Assembly: GCA_021841005.1 (NCBI GenBank)
Contig: JAKBVZ010000036.1
Location: 1-64,000, forward strand
Direction: 5' to 3'
Source of the DNA: Actinomycetes bacterium
GTDB lineage: Bacteria; Actinomycetota; Acidimicrobiia; Acidimicrobiales; JAMCPL01
Length of the DNA stretch: 64,000 nt
The translations under genes and the position numbers were made by a program. Under the pieces are notes generated by a model, which worked only from the letters and a program-made list of their open reading frames with translations, was not told the origin of the DNA and made no database searches. Shown here one piece after another: positions 27,892 to 60,042 of the stretch (within the stretch, counting starts at the first letter, position 1; each line of letters opens with the position of its first letter).

Positions 27892-28821
27892 CTACGTAAG
27901 CCCGACATCCGTAAGCCTCAATCCGGCCAAAGCCTCGCCCTGTGCATCGTCAGGATTGCCTGGTTCCGGCTCACCTTGCCCCCGTCCAACCCGACCACCC
28001 GAAGTGACCACCTGTGCATCTTCAGGATTGCCTGGCTCCGGCTCGTAAGCGGTGACAGGCACCTCTTTGACGCCCTTGAGGCCAGCAAGCAGTTCGACTG
28101 GAATAGGCACTATTATTGTAGACCGATTTTCGTTGGCAATCTCGGTAAGGGCATGCAGGGTACGCAGGTGGAGCGCTCCGGGTGATTCGGCCAACTTGGC
28201 TGCCGCTCTTGCCAGGCCGGCACTGGATTCCTGCTCACCACTGGCAGATATCACCTTTGCACGCCTCACCCGTTCCGCCTCCGCTTGGCGCGCCATCGCC
28301 GATATCAGCTCCGGCGGCAGCACTATATCCTTGATCTCCACCTGACGCACCTCGACTCCCCAGTTATGAGTCGAGAAAGCGATCTGGGCTCGCAACTCGT
28401 TGTTTACGTTGTCGCGATGAGCAAGCAGCTGATCAAGCTCGTACCTGCCTATAATAGATCTCAATGAGGTCATAGCTATCCTCTGGCAGGCAAACCGGAA
28501 ATTGTCAACCGCCACAACTGCCTTGATGGGATCCATCACCTGGAAATACACTACTGCGTCCACTTGGATGGTGACGTTGTCTGCCGTAATGACCGACTGG
28601 GGAGGGATGTCTACCACCTCTACGCGTAAGGTAACCCTCTGAAGCTTATGTACAACCGGCAACTTGACTATAATGCCCGGGCCTCTTGGATGTGAGACCA
28701 CATGACCAAACCGGAAGAACACCGCCCTCTCATACTCAGGTATGACCCTGATCGAGTTTGCCGCTACAATTCCAGCCACCACCAGCAGCATGATTACCAG
28801 TAGTAAGGCAAGTGCAACCAC
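27892..28821 (-). CDS. SPFH/Band 7 (slipin/stomatin-like) protein
   Basis: IRVIPEYERAVFFRFGHVVSHPRGPGIIVKLPVVHKLQRVTLR; STHNWGVEVRQVEIKDIVLP. Confidence 0.9.
   Translation of the reverse strand: MVALALLLVIMLLVVAGIVAANSIRVIPEYERAVFFRFGHVVSHPRGPGIIVKLPVVHKLQRVTLRVEVVDIPPQSVITADNVTIQVDAVVYFQVMDPIKAVVAVDNFRFACQRIAMTSLRSIIGRYELDQLLAHRDNVNNELRAQIAFSTHNWGVEVRQVEIKDIVLPPELISAMARQAEAERVRRAKVISASGEQESSAGLARAAAKLAESPGALHLRTLHALTEIANENRSTIIVPIPVELLAGLKGVKEVPVTAYEPEPGNPEDAQVVTSGGRVGRGQGEPEPGNPDDAQGEALAGLRLTDVGLT
27939..28044. repeat. Paired 34-bp direct repeat, period 72 bp (27939-27972 / 28011-28044; 38-bp spacer)
   Basis: CCTGTGCATC[G/T]TCAGGATTGCCTGG[T/C]TCCGGCTC; 32/34 identical. Confidence 0.95.
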
Positions 28822-39496: not shown

Positions 39497-42343
39497 ATGA
39501 CCATGCTGTTTGATGGGCTGTCGCACCAATTGCCTGACATCGATCCGGAAGAGACCATGGAGTGGATGGACTCCTTCGACGCTGTCGTCGATACCAAGGG
39601 CCGTGGCCGTGGGCGGTTCCTTCTTATGAAAATGCTCGAACGTGCCAGGACAAAGCAAGTGGATTTCCCCGCCACTATATCCACCCCCTACGTCAATACC
39701 ATAGCGAAAGATCAGGAGCCATGGTTTCCTGGAGACGAACAAATGGAGAGACGGATAAGGGCTTATATACGCTGGAATGCCGCCGTCATGGTCATAAGGG
39801 CGAATACACGCAATCCCGGCATCGGCGGGCATCTATCCACTTACGCAAGTTCCGCAACACTGTATGAAGTAGGTTTCAACTATTTCTTCAGGGGAAAGTC
39901 GGATGGCGGGTTCGGAGACCAGGTCTTTTTCCAAGGGCACGCATCACCAGGGATATACGCTAGGGCGTTTGTAGAAGGCCGGCTGAGCGAAGAGCAGATG
40001 GACAGCTTCAGGACAGAGGTAGACAACGGAGGGCTACCAAGCTACCCTCATCCTCGCCTCGCTCCGGACTTCTGGGAGTTCCCCACAGTTTCGATGGGCC
40101 TAGGGCCGCTGTTCGCCATATACCAGGCACATATAAACCGCTACCTGCAGAGCCGCGAACTCGTCGATACCTCCAATGCCAGGGTATGGGCGTTTGCCGG
40201 TGATGGGGAGATGGACGAGCCTGAAGCAATAGCAGCGCTGGGAGTAGCGGGCCGGGAACACTTGGACAACCTCATCTTCGTGGTCAATTGCAACCTCCAG
40301 CGCCTCGATGGCCCGGTACGGGGAAACGGAAAGATCATCCAGGAACTCGAAGCGACCTTTCGTGGCGCCGGATGGAATGTAATCAAGGTCATCTGGGGTT
40401 CCAAGTGGGACGACCTGCTTGCCAGAGATGTAGACGGCGTCCTGCTCGACAAGATGAACACCACCCCCGATGGTGATTTCCAAAAATACGCCACCGAATC
40501 GGGTGCATACATTCGCGAGCACTTCTTCGGACCGGACCCAAGACTGCGCAAGATGGTGGAACATCTTACCGACGAAGAGCTCCAGAACCTTCCTAGAGGA
40601 GGCCATGACTACCGCAAACTCTATGCCGCCTACAAGCTGGCAACTGAAGAACGGGAGGCGCCTACTGCCATCCTGGCAAAGACGATCAAGGGTTGGATGC
40701 TGGGACCAGAGGTGGAGGCACGCAACGCCACCCATCAGATCAAGAAGATGGGCAGCGCTCAGCTAGTGGCGCTACGAGATCGCCTCAATCTCATAGAGGA
40801 AATACCTGACAGCGCCTTGGATGGCGATATCCCCCCTTACTACCGACCGGAAAAAGGCTCTACCGCTTACGACTATATCATGGCTAGACGTAAGCTGACG
40901 GCAGGCCCGGTGCCTCAACGAGTGGTCAGGAAGCGCACTACCGGTAAACCGGACGCCAAGGTTTTCGATGACCTGCTGGAAGGATCCAACGGGCAAGCCG
41001 TCTCCACCACCATGGTATTCGCTAGGTTGTTACGCAACATGGCCAGGGATGCCGAAATCGGCAAACTGGTGGTACCTATCGTACCTGACGAAGCACGCAC
41101 TTTCGGCCTCGAACCACTTATTTCCGAACACAAGATCTACGCTCCCGAGGGGCAGCTGTACACACCCGTCGACGCAGGTCTGCTGCTGACCTACGCAGAG
41201 GCAAAAAACGGCCAGATACTCGAAGAGGGCATAACCGAAGCGGGAGCCATGGCTGCTTTTGGTAGCCTAGCGACCGCCTATGCCACCTGGGGTCGGCCCA
41301 TGATACCTATACTGCTCTTTTACTCGATGTTTGGTTTCCAGCGCGCAGGAGATATCACGTGGCTGCTCGGCGATATCCGGGCAAGGGGGATACTCGCTGG
41401 CTGCACAGCAGGACGTACCACACTTGAAGGCGAGGGACTCCAGCATGACGATGGGCATTCCCCCCTGCTGGCATCGGTAAATCCCGCCTGCCGCATATAT
41501 GACCCTGCTTTCTCGTACGAGATAGCGGCAATCATGCAATATGCAGTGAAAGAGATCCTCGACCCCGACAGTGAGGATGCCTTTTTCTATCTCACCTTAT
41601 ACAACGAGAATTATCCCATGCAGGCACTACCGCCTGGGATTGACAGGGATCGCATCCTGGAAGGCACGGTCAAGGGTATGTACCTCTATGCAGAACGCCC
41701 AGACGGCGTTAGCCGTGCTACGGACAGGAAAGACAGCCAGGACAGCAGGGACAGCAGGGACAGCAGGGACAGCAGGGACAGCGCAACCAGTGGCAACGGC
41801 CCAGCCGGCAAGGTGCCCTCATCGCACGAATCAAACGGACTTTCCGCAACGTTGCTTTTCTCAGGTCCGCTCTTCGGGGAGGTAATGAAAGCCCGAGAAT
41901 TGCTCGCTTCGGACTGGGGGATAGGTGCCGACGTATACTCTGCAACCTCGTACACCACATTGCGCCGGGAAGCTCTATCCACGATGCGCCACAACATGCT
42001 GCATCCGACTATTGCTCCCAGGTTGCCATATGTCACCCAGATGCTCTCCGGCGGTACGGGACCGATTGTAGCCGTAAGTGATTACATCCGGTCGGTTCCA
42101 GACCAGATAGCCCGATTCGTTCCTGCCGGACGGATGTTTATGTCACTCGGCACAGACGGGTTCGGCAGATCGGACACGCGTAGTGCACTGAGACGTTTCT
42201 TCGAGACAGATGCGGCACACATAGTCGTTGCCACGCTGTACGCGCTCGCTCTCGCCGGGGAGATAGGACCCGAAACGGTTGCTGCTGCGATAAGGCGATA
42301 CAGTATCGACCCTGAGCTACCCGACCCCTGGGCACTGAAGTAG
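39497..42343 (+). CDS. aceE: Pyruvate dehydrogenase E1 component, homodimeric type
   Basis: [34 protein letters not shown]-like; [29 protein letters not shown]; ends WALK. Confidence 0.94.
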   Translation: [948 protein letters not shown]

Positions 42344-42441
42344 GCCTGGAACACAAGTGGGGCGGTCGCGATTTATATTACCTCCTATCGCGTCGTAATG
42401 GGTGGCTGAAGTAAATCTGGAACAGAGGTGGGGCGGTCGCG
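42335..42441. repeat. Paired 36-bp direct repeat, period 71 bp (42335-42370 / 42406-42441; 35-bp spacer)
   Basis: CTGAAGTAGGCCTGGAACACAAGTGGGGCGGTCGCG vs CTGAAGTAAATCTGGAACAGAGGTGGGGCGGTCGCG; 31/36 identical; copy 1 includes the aceE stop. Confidence 0.9.
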
Positions 42442-42746
42442 GTCAACGGCACCCGACCCCCATTTCCACCCAGCTCACTCCACCGGAAGCAGCCTACATA
42501 TTATCGGACTGCGATGCTAATGCTCTGGTGGTTTCTCGGGAACTAATCACTGTGGCCACCGATGCTTTGGATATCCTGAAGCATGAAGACGCTGCACTCC
42601 CTGCCAGGATACTCAAGCTGTCCACCGGTACCGGGGTTTCCGGTGGATACCCATGTCACACGTCTTGCGATCCCTGCCAGGATACTCAAGCTATCCACCG
42701 GTACCGGTTCGCATGCCAGCTGGTTATCAATACACACTACATGTAG
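42402..42746 (+). pseudogene. Remnant of an AMP-binding acyl-CoA synthetase
   Basis: RHPTPISTQLTPPEAAYILSDCDANALVVSRELITVATDAL resembles the N-terminal part of acyl-CoA ligases; the rest is missing. Confidence 0.45.
42598..42707. repeat. Paired 37-bp direct repeat, period 73 bp (42598-42634 / 42671-42707; 36-bp spacer)
   Basis: TCCCTGCCAGGATACTCAAGCT[G/A]TCCACCGGTACCGG; 36/37 identical. Confidence 0.95.
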
Positions 42747-42828: not shown

Positions 42829-43908
42829 GTGCCTACCAGGTACTATCTGCAACCATCCACAAGACAGTTGCGTAACCGGAGAGTGAGGATGATAGCTGCA
42901 ACTACCAGCACAGACAGGTCAAACGGATCGGACAGGGCAACGCAGTTGCGTAAAACACACCTGACCGGACCTACCGATGACCCGTTCATCAATGCCGTTA
43001 TACGACGATCCCTAGATCCAGATCCAAAGCTCAGACGACTGGCTGCATCCAGCCGGCATGCCACCCCATTTATACTGGCGTTCCTTGCCCTTGACGACGA
43101 TGGCATTACCCGTATGAAAGTGGCCGGCAACGCTATCACGCCGAGCGTAGTGCTGGAACACCTCTCTCTGGATTCGCTGGACAGCGTGAGGGCCGAAGTG
43201 GCCGGCAACCCAAATGTCACCCCTGCCTTACTGGAAGAGCTTTCTGATGATCAATCATTCCTGGTAAGGGCACGCGTGGCAAGCAACAGGGCTTCAGACG
43301 TGAGCGTGCTTGCCTACCTGGCAGACGATGCCAACTGGAGCGTACGGGAAGCGGTTGCCTCCAACCCCATGACCCTGCAAGAAACACTTGATCAGCTGGC
43401 TACGGACGACTCGTCACATGTGCGCCGCGCAGTAGGAAACAACCCTGCCACATCGCTCAAGTGGCTCATGGCGCTCGCTGACGATCCGGACCGGTCCGTG
43501 CGTACAGCCGTATATGGCAACCCGTCCAGTAACGATCAAGTGAGGAACAAGGTGGAAGGATACCTTTCAGTACGGGTAGGTATCCATCCTGCTGCAAGTC
43601 TGGCAACAGATGCACGTAGGCTCATGAATATGGCAAGCAACCGCAACTGGGTAATCCGCCAGGGCGTCGCCATGAATCCGGTAGCTCCTAGGCACGCGTT
43701 GACACAACTGGCCAAGGACCCCGACTGGAGAGTAAGACGAGGCGTGGCGGCAAACCATGCCACACCCAGAGACACCCTGATCCTGCTTGCAGACGACAAC
43801 CATCCTGAGGTATGCCAGGCGGTAGCCGACAACTCGGCCGTCCCTCCCGCCGCTCTCACGATTGCCTTGGCCAACTTGGCCAAGGTGCACCGGCGTTACG
43901 TTGTATAG
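42829..43908 (+). CDS. Leucine-rich-repeat-variant (LRV)/HEAT-like repeat protein
   Basis: Repeated ~24-aa units such as VRAEVAGNPNVTPALLEELSDDQSFLVRARVASNRA; ATG at 42889 is an alternative start. Confidence 0.75.
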   Translation: MPTRYYLQPSTRQLRNRRVRMIAATTSTDRSNGSDRATQLRKTHLTGPTDDPFINAVIRRSLDPDPKLRRLAASSRHATPFILAFLALDDDGITRMKVAGNAITPSVVLEHLSLDSLDSVRAEVAGNPNVTPALLEELSDDQSFLVRARVASNRASDVSVLAYLADDANWSVREAVASNPMTLQETLDQLATDDSSHVRRAVGNNPATSLKWLMALADDPDRSVRTAVYGNPSSNDQVRNKVEGYLSVRVGIHPAASLATDARRLMNMASNRNWVIRQGVAMNPVAPRHALTQLAKDPDWRVRRGVAANHATPRDTLILLADDNHPEVCQAVADNSAVPPAALTIALANLAKVHRRYVV

Positions 43909-44015
43909 AGCGCCATCTAGCGGGTCCGCTGATGCCAGAACCTACAGCACCGAAGGCATGACGGCGTTTACGCTGTGGGTTGCCGCGCTGCCGACTGCTG
44001 TGCTACCACACGATG

Positions 44016-44117
44016 CACACCTGCACACCTGCACACCTGCACACCTGCACACCTGCACACCTGCACACCTGCACACCTGCACACCTGCACACCTGCACAC
44101 CTGCACACCTGCACACC
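44016..44117. repeat. 8-bp tandem array (CACACCTG), ~12-13 copies
   Basis: Read directly; lies between the two LRV paralogs. ORFs predicted across it are repeat artefacts. Confidence 0.97.
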
Positions 44118-44215
44118 GCACCAGGTACCCGGGCCCAGACACGGGCTACACAGACTATATTGCCTCCATGCCCAGGCACTGGTATGCACCTGTGTGGCAG
44201 AACATCATGCTATGA

Positions 44216-45325
44216 TTGAGTGTAGAGGATACGGAGGAGACCATAGAGTTGGCCATCGGTAAATGGGTACAGGCAGGCAGGAACCATGGTTCTGGAAAGA
44301 ACATACAGCAACAAGGTAGGGGATCGGATAGCACGGGTACCGGCCCGGGTACTGGTGAAGGCGACCACTCCGAGAAGGTCGGCAGTCCAAGCAATATACC
44401 GACGCTTAACAGCCTGATCAGGCGGGCCCTCGACCCTGACTATAAGAAAAGGAAACTTGCAGCGGCGGATCGTAACGCCCACCCATTCATACTGGCATGC
44501 CTGGCCATGGACGAGGAAGAAAAGGTGCGCGCAGAGGTTGCCGCGAACCCGTCCGCCACGCTTGAAATACTTACCCACCTGCTCCATGACCCCGATGAAA
44601 ACGTCAGGGTGAAGGTGGCGACAAGCCGGACCGTCACCGCCCAGATGCTCGACGCGCTGGCAGGTGACAGCGCTTTTGCCGTCCGCGTCGAAGTGGCCAA
44701 GAGCAGAACCGCCGAGCCTGCAGTGCTCACTTACCTGGTCAACGATCCGAGCCATGATGTCAGGAGCGCAGTTGCCTCGAATGCCGGCGCCACCCCTGAT
44801 ATCCTTGCTATTCTATCGGAAGACGATTCACCAGCGGTACGTATGGCAGCAGCCAGGAACGCACGCACTCCCGAACACGCCCTCGAGACTCTGGCAAGAG
44901 ATGAAGACAGGTCAGTGAGAATGGCTGCATACGGCAACCCCTCCGCCACAGAAGAGGTTCGCAAGCTGGCCGAGGAAATTTCGATCACCACCACCAAAGT
45001 ACATCCGGCCCTAGACGCTGGCAGTGACCCGGATTCACTTGGCGCGATGGCGGTCAGCGACAATTGGGTCATACGTCAAGGCGTTGCAATGAACAAGGCA
45101 ACACCGAAAGACCTGCTGGCAAGCCTGGCGATGGATCGTAACTGGCAGGTGCGCAGGGGAGTGGCACTGAATACGGCCACACCCGAAAAGATCCTCCATG
45201 ATCTTGCCTCTGATCCCGAAAGAGATGTCCGTCAAGCAGTGGCTGACAACCCGAGTGCCACTAAAGACGTCATAGATATAGCCCTGCGCAGTCTGGAAGT
45301 CCACAAGCATCGCCAGCCGATATGA
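44216..45325 (+). CDS. LRV/HEAT-like repeat protein, paralog of the upstream gene
   Basis: LNSLIRRALDPDYKKRKLAAADRNAHPFILACLAMDEEEKVRAEVAANPSATLEIL parallels the 42829 gene; TTG start likely. Confidence 0.75.
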   Translation: MSVEDTEETIELAIGKWVQAGRNHGSGKNIQQQGRGSDSTGTGPGTGEGDHSEKVGSPSNIPTLNSLIRRALDPDYKKRKLAAADRNAHPFILACLAMDEEEKVRAEVAANPSATLEILTHLLHDPDENVRVKVATSRTVTAQMLDALAGDSAFAVRVEVAKSRTAEPAVLTYLVNDPSHDVRSAVASNAGATPDILAILSEDDSPAVRMAAARNARTPEHALETLARDEDRSVRMAAYGNPSATEEVRKLAEEISITTTKVHPALDAGSDPDSLGAMAVSDNWVIRQGVAMNKATPKDLLASLAMDRNWQVRRGVALNTATPEKILHDLASDPERDVRQAVADNPSATKDVIDIALRSLEVHKHRQPI

Positions 45326-46011: not shown

Positions 46012-46794
46012 ATGCACGGCCAAGAAGGTACCTCTCACCGTACCTCATCCTCACCTCGGGCGCGGTATGGTGGAACGGCCGTGCCTGAACGGTCGCGAAG
46101 GAACCTCCTGAGGGACGATGTGTACAGGAGACCGCTCGAAACCGCACTCGACAGGCTGGGCGTGTCAGACGGCTGGAAGTGCGTGGATGCCGGCGCCGGC
46201 GGTGGCGATGTTTCAGTTGCACTGGCGGAAATTGTCGGAGCCACAGGACGTATATACTCTGTCGACATTGATCCCGTAGCAAGGGACGAGGTGGCCTCGA
46301 GAGCAGCCGCATACAGCCAGGTAATTGCAATCACCCAGGCAGCAGAAGACCTATTGCTACCGGAACCAGTGGACCTGGCATTCTGCCGCTTTCTCCTAAT
46401 GCATGTCCATGACCCTCTGGTGGTCGTGTGCAGGATGGCGACTGCCGTCAGGCCAGGAGGGTTTGTAGTCGCCCAGGAGCCGGTGACATCGGCCGGCAGG
46501 ATAGGTGGACTGCCCTTCTCCATGGAAGGAGCGTTGCATCCCGACGCCGGTGATGTCCTGCCTTCCCTAATACGCCAAGCAGGTCTTGAACTGGTCGACT
46601 GCTGGGCGGAATCTCCCGCATGGGCCGGTGAGGGACCAGTTGCCCGCTATCTCGAGCGCTTGACTGGGGTAGATCCCTGCGACAATCCAGTCATACTCCC
46701 CCCCCTAGTGACGGCGGTAGGCCGTGTACCGGAGAATCGTCCGGTAGACAGCCAGAACAGGATACCGGTAGCTGACCGTCCGACCGATTGGTGA
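46012..46794 (+). CDS. SAM-dependent methyltransferase
   Basis: KCVDAGAGGGDVSVALAEIVGATGRIYSVDIDP. Confidence 0.82.
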   Translation: MHGQEGTSHRTSSSPRARYGGTAVPERSRRNLLRDDVYRRPLETALDRLGVSDGWKCVDAGAGGGDVSVALAEIVGATGRIYSVDIDPVARDEVASRAAAYSQVIAITQAAEDLLLPEPVDLAFCRFLLMHVHDPLVVVCRMATAVRPGGFVVAQEPVTSAGRIGGLPFSMEGALHPDAGDVLPSLIRQAGLELVDCWAESPAWAGEGPVARYLERLTGVDPCDNPVILPPLVTAVGRVPENRPVDSQNRIPVADRPTDW

Positions 46795-46867
46795 GCAACC
46801 TCTTTGCTAGAACCCTGACTCCGGTGAACCTGGATACCGGTAGCTGACCGTCCGACCGATTGGCGAG
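46760..46867. repeat. Paired 36-bp direct repeat, period 72 bp (46760-46795 / 46832-46867; 36-bp spacer)
   Basis: GGATACCGGTAGCTGACCGTCCGACCGATTGG[T/C]GAG; 35/36 identical; copy 1 contains the methyltransferase stop. Confidence 0.96.
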
Positions 46868-48680: not shown

Positions 48681-48789
48681 CGACATCTCAATCCTCAGCT
48701 AGATCCTCGGTAGTAACCTGATGCCCCGTCAAAGTATGGCGTCGATAGATATCGACATCTCAACCCTCAGCTGGATCCTCGGTAGTAAC
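48681..48789. repeat. Paired 37-bp direct repeat, period 72 bp (48681-48717 / 48753-48789; 35-bp spacer)
   Basis: CGACATCTCAA[T/C]CCTCAGCT[A/G]GATCCTCGGTAGTAAC; 35/37 identical; copy 2 contains the lgt stop. Confidence 0.95.
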
Positions 48790-51784: not shown

Positions 51785-51890
51785 GGACATCACAGAGTGG
51801 GGGTGGAGGGATTCGAACAATACACGGGCTGCGGCATAGTGGCCGCAGCGGACATTGGACATCACAGAGTGGGGGTGGAGGGATTCGAAC
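51785..51890. repeat. Paired 34-bp direct repeat, period 72 bp (51785-51818 / 51857-51890; 38-bp spacer), one copy spanning the tRNA 3' end
   Basis: GGACATCACAGAGTGGGGGTGGAGGGATTCGAAC, 34/34 identical. Confidence 0.98.
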
Positions 51891-51943
51891 CCTCACTGGA
51901 GGCGGTTTAAGCGCCTTGCCTCTGCCGGTTGGGCTACACCCCC
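51870..51943 (-). tRNA. tRNA with anticodon UAA (Leu by codon) and a short variable loop
   Basis: GGGGGTGTAGCCCAACCGGCAGAGGCAAGGCGCTTAAACCGCCTCCAGTGAGGGTTCGAATCCCTCCACCCCCA; 7-bp acceptor, 5-bp anticodon and 5-bp T stems intact; variable loop CCAGT. Confidence 0.88.
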
Positions 51944-57338: not shown

Positions 57339-57815
57339 GTGGACCATATAGGGGTGGTGGATACCATGTTCGCCCGCGTCGACATGGCTGCAGAGGCAAT
57401 GGATGAGTTGCGCTCATGCGATGGATATGGCAGCAAATTCGAGGTGGTCCATAGAACTGTACCCGGCTTCAAGGATCTGGGGGTCGAATGCAAGCGCCTG
57501 ATCCACCTGCACGGGTGCAATATAGTCATTGCCATCGGCATGGCCGGGAGCGCCCCTGTGGATCAAATCTGCGCGCATGAAGCCAGCCAGGCCATCATGC
57601 TGGCACAACTGCTGACAAATACACATGTGCTCGAAGTTTTCGTATACGAAAACGAGGCTGATGATCCATCGAAGCTTGCGGAAATCTGCAGGCAACGTGC
57701 CCGCAAACATGCACGCAACGCCTACTGGCTTCTCTACGATCCAGATCAGCTCGCAAGGAGGGCAGGGCAGGGTATCCGCCAAGGGGCTGCCGATGCAGGT
57801 CCGTTGCCGGAGTAG
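57339..57815 (+). CDS. ribC: Archaeal-type riboflavin synthase (lumazine-synthase-like fold)
   Basis: IGVVDTMFARVDMAAEAM, HRTVPGFKDLGVECKRLIHLHGCNIVIAIGMAG, ICAHEASQAIMLAQLLTNTHVLEVFVYENEADDP, GQGIRQGAADAGPLPE match the archaeal RibC pattern along their whole length. Confidence 0.88.
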   Translation: MDHIGVVDTMFARVDMAAEAMDELRSCDGYGSKFEVVHRTVPGFKDLGVECKRLIHLHGCNIVIAIGMAGSAPVDQICAHEASQAIMLAQLLTNTHVLEVFVYENEADDPSKLAEICRQRARKHARNAYWLLYDPDQLARRAGQGIRQGAADAGPLPE

Positions 57816-57918
57816 GGCATTACCTGCTTAGGGCATTACCTGCTTAGGGCATTACCGGAGTAGGGCATTACCGGAGTAGGGCATTACCGGAGTAGGGCAT
57901 TACCGGAGTAGGGCATTA
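57807..57918. repeat. 16-bp tandem array (CCGGAGTAGGGCATTA / CCTGCTTAGGGCATTA), 7 units
   Basis: Unit order A B B A A A A; first unit contains the ribC stop codon. Confidence 0.95.
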
Positions 57919-58080
57919 CCTAGCTGCTTAGAAGTCCTCCGGCGTAGGACATACTAATGTACGATATTCGTGTCATAGGATATTCACGTTATGGGATATT
58001 GACACATGCTATGCTATGCTATGCTCCAAGCGCTCTTTCCAGCCGGGCTCTTGACCACCTGACTGGAGGTACCGGTCAGA

Positions 58081-60042
58081 TTAGTAGCCAAGCTCCATGC
58101 TCTTCCCTATTTCCCTGGATTGCTCCGGCCCCATATGCAGCCTTAACCTGGTCTGACGAACCATTCTCTCCAGATCATTGGTCTCAGCCAACCGCGCCAA
58201 GGAAGACCTGGCCGCGCTCGGCTCATCATTGGCATATGCATTATCATCTGCGTCGATACCATGTGCCGGACCGCTTCCTGCGTCTCTTGCAGAACCTGGC
58301 AGATAGCCACTATTGGAGCACCAATAAGGGTCGGTAGTATGAAGATCCATGTGCTTACGGCCTTCCTGCAACCATCGGTCGGCATAGGCTTGGATGCTCT
58401 CCCTCGTTCGCGTCCAGACGGCCAACTCGACGGGATGAGCAGGCCGTGGCCCTATCCTCTCCATCCAGCTATTCACGACACCTGCAGACGTGACATCTAC
58501 GGATCGCGCAGGCGATCCTGCGACCCTGCCTGCTCCATCTTCAGGACTCTGTCCGGTACCTTGCATCTCGAGATGCCTACCGTAATCCACCATGGTTTGC
58601 TCCACTAGGATAGCCTTCCAGCGAGCAAAAGCGCTCTTTACCGAATGCAGCTCATGACGCTCTTCATGCACGCCCACTCGCATTTTCTTACCCGTGTTGT
58701 CCAGCACTGAATCCACCGTTTGCTCGATCTGCCCCAAAGACGCACCCTCTGTCAACGCACCGCTCCAAGCCCGCACAAGTTCCCTGCGGCATACTGGCAC
58801 GCCTCTCTCCGCGAGGGAGTCCAAGGCACGCATCCCAGCCTCAACCATCCTATTCGCGCTCTCCCCTACATCCGGCGAGCGCTGCGGAGACCTGTCCAAC
58901 ACCCCTTCGAGTTGCCTAGGTCCAAGCCCTCTGTGGATGGCGCGTTCTCTCCATGTGGCAACCAAGTCGTCTGCCGATATGGACAGATCCTTCTCCGGTC
59001 GAGTGGCCATTCCTGCGACATATCGGGCACGAGACGACGCGCCTGCACTGAGTCCGAAAGAATTCAGGCGATCGTGAATCTGTGCCTGCCGCGTGGAGAA
59101 TTCTTCTATCACATCTCGCGAAATGCCCTTGATGTCTGCCCTTCCTCTCACCGGCGTGTTCCACTCCACTCCAAGGCTGCTCGCCAGGTCATGACGCAAC
59201 ACTGCATGATAGAGTGCGTCTGCAGCACTCCTGTGCGCATAAAGCCCTCGCCCATCCAGCGCAGACCAATCCAGCGCAGACCAATCCAGCGCACCGGCCT
59301 GGATACCGCTCGGCCTGCCATGAGCGTCCGGCAAAATGATGCCGGCACCGGCGCCAGGCCCGTTGAGAGGTTCTCCGTCGCCGTAGCCGTCCAGGCCTAT
59401 ACCCGTGGTGTCGCCAACTTCGATATCCGTATCAGCACCCATGATCTTGACGGTGCCGCTGAATCCGATATTGGCCACCACCGAATGCGTATGCAGATGC
59501 GGATCGAGAGCGCGAGATGTCCTGTGTAGGAAACTTGCTCCCAGCGCGCCACCTGTGGGAAGGACCACCCTGCCCACACTGGTTTCCACCGACTCATTGG
59601 ACGCAATGTGATCGGGAAAACCCCGAGCATGACCACGCTGGCGCCGTACGGCCAGACCGTGCTCCTCCAGGTAAGAAAACGCCTCTGAAACAGCATGGAC
59701 GTGTCCCGACACGACCCGCTCAGCAACCTCTGTATCCCCCAGGGTAGCCAGCAGGCTGACCGATTTCGGTGCGCAAAAAGTAAGGTCAAATCCTACAACC
59801 TTGACCCTTCCCTGGTTCGCCGAGAGATTCCCGCCGAAAGGGTCACGGCCTGACAGCATCAGCCGCCATTCTTCGGGTGTCACGATACCGTCCAGTCCAA
59901 AGACTGCCATGCCGCGCCCTACCCATGACCCTAATGGCTCCACCTGCCTGTTCCCCAGCACGCCGGTAGGCAACAAGTAATAATCTGCTCTGCCGTAGCC
60001 CAGTTTCGATAGTCGTAGCACCCTTGGACCTCCAAGATGCAC
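58081..60042 (-). CDS. MobF/TrwC-type relaxase-domain protein, no helicase domain
   Basis: GFDLTFCAPKSVSLLATLGD; HRTSRALDPHLHTHSVVANI three-His motif; 653 aa only. Confidence 0.82.
   Translation of the reverse strand: MHLGGPRVLRLSKLGYGRADYYLLPTGVLGNRQVEPLGSWVGRGMAVFGLDGIVTPEEWRLMLSGRDPFGGNLSANQGRVKVVGFDLTFCAPKSVSLLATLGDTEVAERVVSGHVHAVSEAFSYLEEHGLAVRRQRGHARGFPDHIASNESVETSVGRVVLPTGGALGASFLHRTSRALDPHLHTHSVVANIGFSGTVKIMGADTDIEVGDTTGIGLDGYGDGEPLNGPGAGAGIILPDAHGRPSGIQAGALDWSALDWSALDGRGLYAHRSAADALYHAVLRHDLASSLGVEWNTPVRGRADIKGISRDVIEEFSTRQAQIHDRLNSFGLSAGASSRARYVAGMATRPEKDLSISADDLVATWRERAIHRGLGPRQLEGVLDRSPQRSPDVGESANRMVEAGMRALDSLAERGVPVCRRELVRAWSGALTEGASLGQIEQTVDSVLDNTGKKMRVGVHEERHELHSVKSAFARWKAILVEQTMVDYGRHLEMQGTGQSPEDGAGRVAGSPARSVDVTSAGVVNSWMERIGPRPAHPVELAVWTRTRESIQAYADRWLQEGRKHMDLHTTDPYWCSNSGYLPGSARDAGSGPAHGIDADDNAYANDEPSAARSSLARLAETNDLERMVRQTRLRLHMGPEQSREIGKSMELGY

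What the first reader, a model, noticed from the sequence alone, without database searches (positions are those of the whole stretch)
51785..51890. tRNA 3'-half duplicated exactly 72 bp downstream
34/34 identical bases covering the T-loop, 3' T-stem, acceptor 3' strand, discriminator and 13 bp of flank. The 38-bp spacer AATACACGGGCTGCGGCATAGTGGCCGCAGCGGACATT holds an 8-bp-stem hairpin (GCTGCGGC/GCCGCAGC). It looks like an att duplication, but the segment is far too short for an integrative element and it shares the 72-bp geometry of five non-tRNA loci. Perfect identity suggests the youngest of the six.
Basis: partly seen in the sequence, partly recalled or inferred. Interest (0 to 1): 0.7.

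Follow-up and report, generated by a model that had tools for sequence, protein, structure and literature searches.

The report
Stray CRISPR spacer insertions across genome
The duplicated tRNA end is one of dozens (probably about two hundred) of recent 72-base insertions in this bacterium, each a ~36-base piece flanked by a ~36-base copy of the target, which is the footprint expected if CRISPR's memory-writing enzyme inserts pieces, many of them one particular hairpin, all over the chromosome instead of only into CRISPR arrays.

Summary
In detail: 51785-51818 equals 51857-51890 (34/34, spacing 72), and five other window loci share the geometry. It is not an att scar. The sister MAG G004 has an exact empty site here, with one copy and no element. 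The 38-bp spacer is one of 76 dispersed copies of a 36-nt hairpin. About 45 of 54 copies examined sit between their own different ~36-bp direct repeats at spacing 70-75. About 40 further loci carry unrelated ~36-bp inserts with the same geometry, and two of these are exact ~36-bp copies of other chromosomal sites. Two loci hold three repeats with two different spacers. Both CRISPR arrays of the host have 36-bp repeats and spacings of 69-78, and the host encodes two intact-looking Cas1 modules (I-G and III-B). G004 lacks Cas1 but keeps a truncated III-B gene. Duplication edges are enriched for G, a known Cas1 preference. Best explanation: genome-wide non-canonical CRISPR spacer integration by Cas1-Cas2, with a hairpin as favoured cargo (about 0.75). 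Such integration is known in E. coli under Cas1-Cas2 overexpression. Natural occurrence at this scale, and the hairpin's spread, appear new. Which Cas1 acts was not shown.

The parts
51785..51818 (.). left copy of the duplicated target (34 bp; tRNA 3' part plus flank); in the empty site of G004 it exists once
51819..51856 (+). 38-bp insert (spacer position) carrying the dispersed hairpin, core CACGGGCTGCGGCATAGTGGCCGCAGCGGAC
51857..51890 (.). right copy of the duplicated target, continuous with the intact tRNA gene
51869..51943 (-). intact tRNA gene (ARAGORN: Leu, anticodon TAA, 75 nt); its 3' part is in the duplication
46760..46867 (.). A-X-A locus: 36-bp repeat, 36-bp insert, spacing 72, at the 3' end of a methyltransferase-like ORF; empty site in G004
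48681..48789 (.). A-X-A locus, spacing 72, at the 3' end of an lgt-like ORF; insert 94% identical to G000:C19:52588-52620; probably shared with G004 (diverged)
42598..42707 (.). A-X-A locus, spacing 73; insert 89% identical to G004:C5:22559-22596
42335..42441 (.). A-X-A locus, spacing 71, overlapping the 3' end of the ORF 39497-42343
27939..28044 (.). older A-X-A locus, spacing 72, in frame inside the C-terminal tail of the ORF 27892-28821 (minus strand); shared with G004

Best explanation
The locus is a scar of non-canonical CRISPR spacer integration, a 'neo-CRISPR' unit. A Cas1-Cas2 complex captured a ~36-bp piece of DNA and joined its two 3' ends to the two strands of ordinary chromosomal DNA about 36 bp apart. 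Gap repair then duplicated that stretch, giving repeat (36) - spacer (36) - repeat (36) with spacing 72. The same happened at dozens of sampled sites (an extrapolated ~185 per genome). In about half of the sampled cases (sampling was biased towards hairpin sites) the captured piece was one particular 36-nt hairpin, a favoured substrate. Shown: the insertions, the empty sites, the 36+36 geometry, self-derived inserts, two loci with two different spacers, and the presence of two Cas1 modules with 36-bp repeats. Inferred: that Cas1-Cas2 is the enzyme, and that the hairpin is favoured because Cas1-Cas2 captures folded single-stranded DNA. Which of the two Cas1s acts is open.
For: (1) Geometry: spacing is 71-73 at 11 of 14 non-simple repeat pairs on contig C17, picked without regard to hairpins. 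Non-hairpin repeats have modal length 36-37. The host's arrays have 36-bp repeats, spaced 69-75 (I-G) and 71-78 (III-B). (2) Exact empty sites in G004 for about 20 loci, with both copies sharing G000-specific substitutions. (3) Inserts copied from elsewhere: L015 9501 is an exact 36-bp copy of G000:C10:13950-13985; L088 1930 copies C6:14899-14936. (4) Three repeats with two different spacers at G000 C34 (L096 16598) and G004 C11 (L070 673). (5) Two Cas1 modules, I-G Cas4-Cas1 and III-B Cas1; both match the solved Geobacter Cas4/Cas1. (6) The first base of the duplication, read inward from both ends, is G in 27 of 56 (p 0.0012 at this one of seven offsets), as reported for Cas1 off-target sites (PMC6895254). 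(7) Type III adaptation is reported to favour ssDNA hairpins (PMC9048733). (8) G004 has lost most of a III-B operon but keeps a truncated first gene.
Against: G004 has recent insertions but no Cas1 or known repeats in a 91%-complete MAG; the III-B remnant only partly answers this. A few related loci were also seen in samples of G001 and G003, which likewise lack Cas1 in their MAGs. No PAM is evident, with only four traced sources. Most inserts have no source in the genome, and those tested had none in phages or IMG/VR. By extrapolation, non-canonical events outnumber the canonical spacers (83 in the arrays read). In the hairpin class the repeat length varies (about 33-43 in recent loci) while the sum stays near 72, which fits a fixed 36-bp ruler only if microhomology or end variation is allowed. 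Two order-level relatives with Cas1 show no such scatter.
Confidence: 0.75

Rival explanations
1. The hairpin is a miniature mobile element with its own unknown transposase that makes ~36-bp target duplications; loci without the hairpin are decayed or captured relatives.
For: 76 copies in G000 and 13 in G004, almost all of those read flanked by private duplications. The stem is near-invariant, with compensatory changes in a few copies.
Against: Recent loci with perfect repeats carry unrelated inserts, including exact chromosomal ~36-mers, so the cargo is arbitrary. The only intact Y1 transposase found is IS200-type with no hairpin nearby. No known transposase with a constant 36-bp duplication comes to mind (own knowledge).
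Confidence: 0.15
2. Repair-type events (staggered breaks, template switching, filler DNA) duplicated the target and added filler.
For: Arbitrary inserts, no target motif beyond an edge G, some inserts copied from the chromosome.
Against: Repair does not explain the 72 +/- 1 spacing, the 36-bp insert length or the repeated use of one hairpin; no such scatter in 84 kb of G002 or 120 kb of G005.
Confidence: 0.07
3. Collapsed attachment-site pair of an integrative element at the tRNA 3' end.
For: A tRNA 3' part is duplicated directly, and a second tRNA (L033 9740) is hit in the same way.
Against: G004 has an empty site with no element; 79 sampled loci, nearly all at non-tRNA targets, share the geometry; the insert is a hairpin of 76 copies.
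Confidence: 0.02

Closest known systems
Non-canonical ('spontaneous') CRISPR spacer integration in E. coli (Nivala, Shipman and Church 2018, Nat Microbiol 3:310; paper not held, cited through PMC11788318 and PMC9456107)
   Same: A spacer-size insert with a repeat-size duplication of ordinary chromosomal DNA, able to grow by further spacers.
   Different: Reported under Cas1-Cas2 overexpression and near IHF-like motifs; here natural, dozens of loci sampled, no motif beyond an edge G, and dominated by one hairpin.
CRISPR adaptation by type I-G (Cas4-Cas1 fusion) and type III systems
   Same: Host carries both modules, with 36-bp repeats and similar spacing; type III adaptation is reported to favour ssDNA hairpins (PMC9048733).
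   Different: Targets are not CRISPR repeats and have no leader.
REP/BIME elements with RAYT transposases
   Same: Short dispersed palindromes.
   Different: REPs are not known for long duplications (own knowledge); no RAYT found with the hairpin.
Casposons (Cas1 transposons)
   Same: Cas1-type integration with duplication.
   Different: Casposons are kilobase elements with ~14-15 bp duplications (own knowledge).

Membership tests
non-canonical CRISPR spacer integration (neo-CRISPR locus) | duplication length equals the host's CRISPR repeat length (36 bp) | tested here: met
   non-hairpin mode 36-37; hairpin class centred near 37 but variable
non-canonical CRISPR spacer integration (neo-CRISPR locus) | spacer-length insert absent from a sister genome that has one copy of the target | tested here: met
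non-canonical CRISPR spacer integration (neo-CRISPR locus) | insert derives from other DNA in the cell | tested here: inconclusive
   two exact ~36-bp chromosomal sources and two diverged ones; most untraced
non-canonical CRISPR spacer integration (neo-CRISPR locus) | can take a second, different spacer with repeat duplication | tested here: met
   L096 and L070, not the window locus
non-canonical CRISPR spacer integration (neo-CRISPR locus) | Cas1-Cas2 present with conserved sequence | tested here: met
   G000: (the Cas2 ORFs were recognised by position and by eye, not searched); absent from the G004 MAG, which keeps a III-B remnant
non-canonical CRISPR spacer integration (neo-CRISPR locus) | Cas1-like G preference at insertion edges | tested here: met
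   27/56 G, p 0.0012 before correction for 7 offsets
non-canonical CRISPR spacer integration (neo-CRISPR locus) | PAM at the insert's source | tested here: inconclusive
   four sources, no shared motif
non-canonical CRISPR spacer integration (neo-CRISPR locus) | dependence on Cas1-Cas2 | not testable with these tools
   needs an experiment
canonical CRISPR array of this host | repeats match the host's repeats R1 or R2 | tested here: not met
   R1/R2 matches in G000 lie only on C33, C19 and the C24 end
tRNA attachment site of an integrative element | element between the repeats in a relative | tested here: not met
   empty site in G004
REP/RAYT | RAYT transposase linked to the palindrome | tested here: not met

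The most novel reading that the evidence does not exclude
A 36-nt hairpin has become a transposon-like parasite of CRISPR adaptation. It folds in single-stranded DNA, is captured by Cas1-Cas2 as a prespacer, and is pasted into random chromosomal sites (76 copies), so the immune system's integrase acts as the transposase of a gene-less element and keeps founding neo-CRISPR loci.
Probability: 0.4. Interest if true: 0.88.

Novelty: new variant of a known kind. Interest (0 to 1): 0.78.

Why it matters
If right, this is a natural genome in which CRISPR spacer integration has spilled over the chromosome, with non-canonical scars outnumbering canonical spacers. It would make the proposed origin of new CRISPR arrays from ordinary DNA directly testable, show the mutational cost of adaptation machinery, and present a gene-less hairpin that spreads through an immune integrase. 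The scars also give a simple signature (repeat-length duplication plus spacer-length insert) to look for in other genomes.

Tried and rejected
Att-site or integrative-element remnant: rejected by the empty site and the many unrelated targets. REP/RAYT: no RAYT with the hairpin. Simple tandem duplication: the matched run is ~36, not 72, except in tandem arrays such as C32 and C15. Target motif: none beyond an edge G. Tracing the filler next to the hairpin to donor copies: no better than shuffled. Phage or virome source of the inserts: none for those tested. The hairpin itself is absent from viral contigs, and in the genome collection it matched one record, whose contig length equals one of the sister MAG. 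Coding repeats of 72 bp (LRR genes in G056) can mimic the spacing, but the window loci are different single sequences, two of them with empty sites. The 60-base query carried 13 arbitrary leading bases to reach the minimum length; the pattern search repeats the count without them.

Full report
Observation. The 34-bp direct repeat at 51785-51818 and 51857-51890, spacing 72, is exactly as described. The tRNA gene (51869-51943, minus strand) is intact and real. A scan of all offsets 30-399 in the window gives six loci with ~34-37 bp repeats at spacing 71-73; shuffled sequence gives none at offsets 40-129.

The spacer is a dispersed hairpin. The 38-bp spacer recurs across the host genome (G000, 2.45 Mb MAG): 76 copies at up to 2 mismatches, 13 in the sister MAG G004, none in the 58 other relatives searched. 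A contig of G004 has the same length as JAMCPL010000014 (Actinobacteria bacterium FK_Sedi_A_Bin.79). The consensus is about 36 nt, CAGTGCACGGGCTGCGGCATAGTGGCCGCAGCRGAC. About 45 of 54 copies examined lie between their own, different direct repeats at spacing 70-75.

Other cargo. Sampling 443 kb of G000 gave 40 of 52 non-simple repeat pairs at spacing 71-73. A larger set from G000 and G004 has 79 loci, 39 with the hairpin and 40 with unrelated inserts; a few low-scoring ones may be coding repeats. Many sampled stretches were chosen around hairpins. Contig C17, which was not, has 11 loci in 144.5 kb, or about 185 per genome by extrapolation.

Empty sites. G004 is about 91% identical and largely syntenic. 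For about 20 loci G004 has the target once and no insert, while both G000 copies share G000-specific substitutions, so the insertions are recent. G004 also has insertions of its own that G000 lacks. In recent loci without the hairpin the duplication is close to 36; with the hairpin it ranges from about 33 to 43, the sum staying near 72. Some of that spread reflects matches between insert ends and target; this part is not fully explained.

Where inserts come from. Two non-hairpin inserts are exact copies of ~36-bp chromosomal stretches (L015 9501 from C10:13950-13985; L088 1930 from C6:14899-14936), and two older ones have diverged sources. No PAM could be seen. The other inserts had no source in these genomes, and those tested had none in phages or viral contigs. 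Two loci, L096 (G000) and L070 (G004), have three repeats with two different spacers.

Machinery. G000 has a type I-G locus (Cas4-Cas1 fusion, Cas3g, Csb1, Csb2) and a type III-B locus with its own Cas1; each Cas1 is followed by a small Cas2-like ORF. Both Cas1 proteins align over their length with the solved Geobacter Cas4/Cas1; the E-H-E motif was read by eye. Both array repeats are 36 bp. Array spacings average 71.2 (I-G) and 74.8 (III-B), against 72.1 and 71.8 for the dispersed loci, which differ from both arrays but lie nearer I-G. G004 lacks Cas1 and these repeats, but next to uvrD it keeps a truncated NE0113-type gene whose counterpart opens the III-B operon in G000, so a III-B locus was probably lost there.

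Mechanism. A ~36-bp insert with a ~36-bp target duplication is the product expected of Cas1-Cas2 joining a prespacer to both strands at a repeat-length stagger. The edge base is G in 48% of ends, the preference reported for Cas1 at off-target sites (PMC6895254). Type III adaptation is reported to favour ssDNA hairpins and tRNA cloverleafs as protospacers (PMC9048733), which would explain why one hairpin is so common. Non-canonical integration after Cas1-Cas2 overexpression in E. coli is known (Nivala et al. 2018, via PMC11788318). What looks new is natural occurrence at this scale and the spread of one hairpin. Two Cas1-positive order relatives show no such scatter in 200 kb each, so this is not a general property.

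Limits. Cas1 dependence is inferred. The I-G or III-B origin is undecided: spacing favours I-G, the G004 remnant and the hairpin favour III-B. G001 and G003 samples also contain a few such loci without Cas1 in their MAGs. The literature search covered open-licence papers only.

Noticed in passing
window 51869-51943 (-): The tRNA is called Leu (anticodon TAA) but is 75 nt with a short variable loop, whereas tRNA-Leu normally has a long variable arm; it is conserved in relatives (100% in G002).
   Followed up: partly
window 58081-60042 (-): Chromosomal ORF whose N-terminal part resembles a MobF/TrwC-type conjugative relaxase; read by eye, not searched.
   Followed up: no
L033 9740-9848 (G000 C30): A second tRNA gene (proline-like by eye) has its 3' end duplicated by the same hairpin insertion.
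   Followed up: partly
L021 7668-7995 (G000 C32), L022 10824-11074 (G000 C15): Hairpin loci amplified into tandem arrays of 72-73 bp units.
   Followed up: partly
window 44014-44121 and 57807-57920: Perfect or near-perfect short tandem arrays (8-bp unit x 13.6; 16-bp unit x 7.1).
   Followed up: no
window 42829-43908 and 44216-45325 (+): Two neighbouring ORFs with internally repeated motifs that look like variant leucine-rich or HEAT-like repeats; not searched.
   Followed up: no
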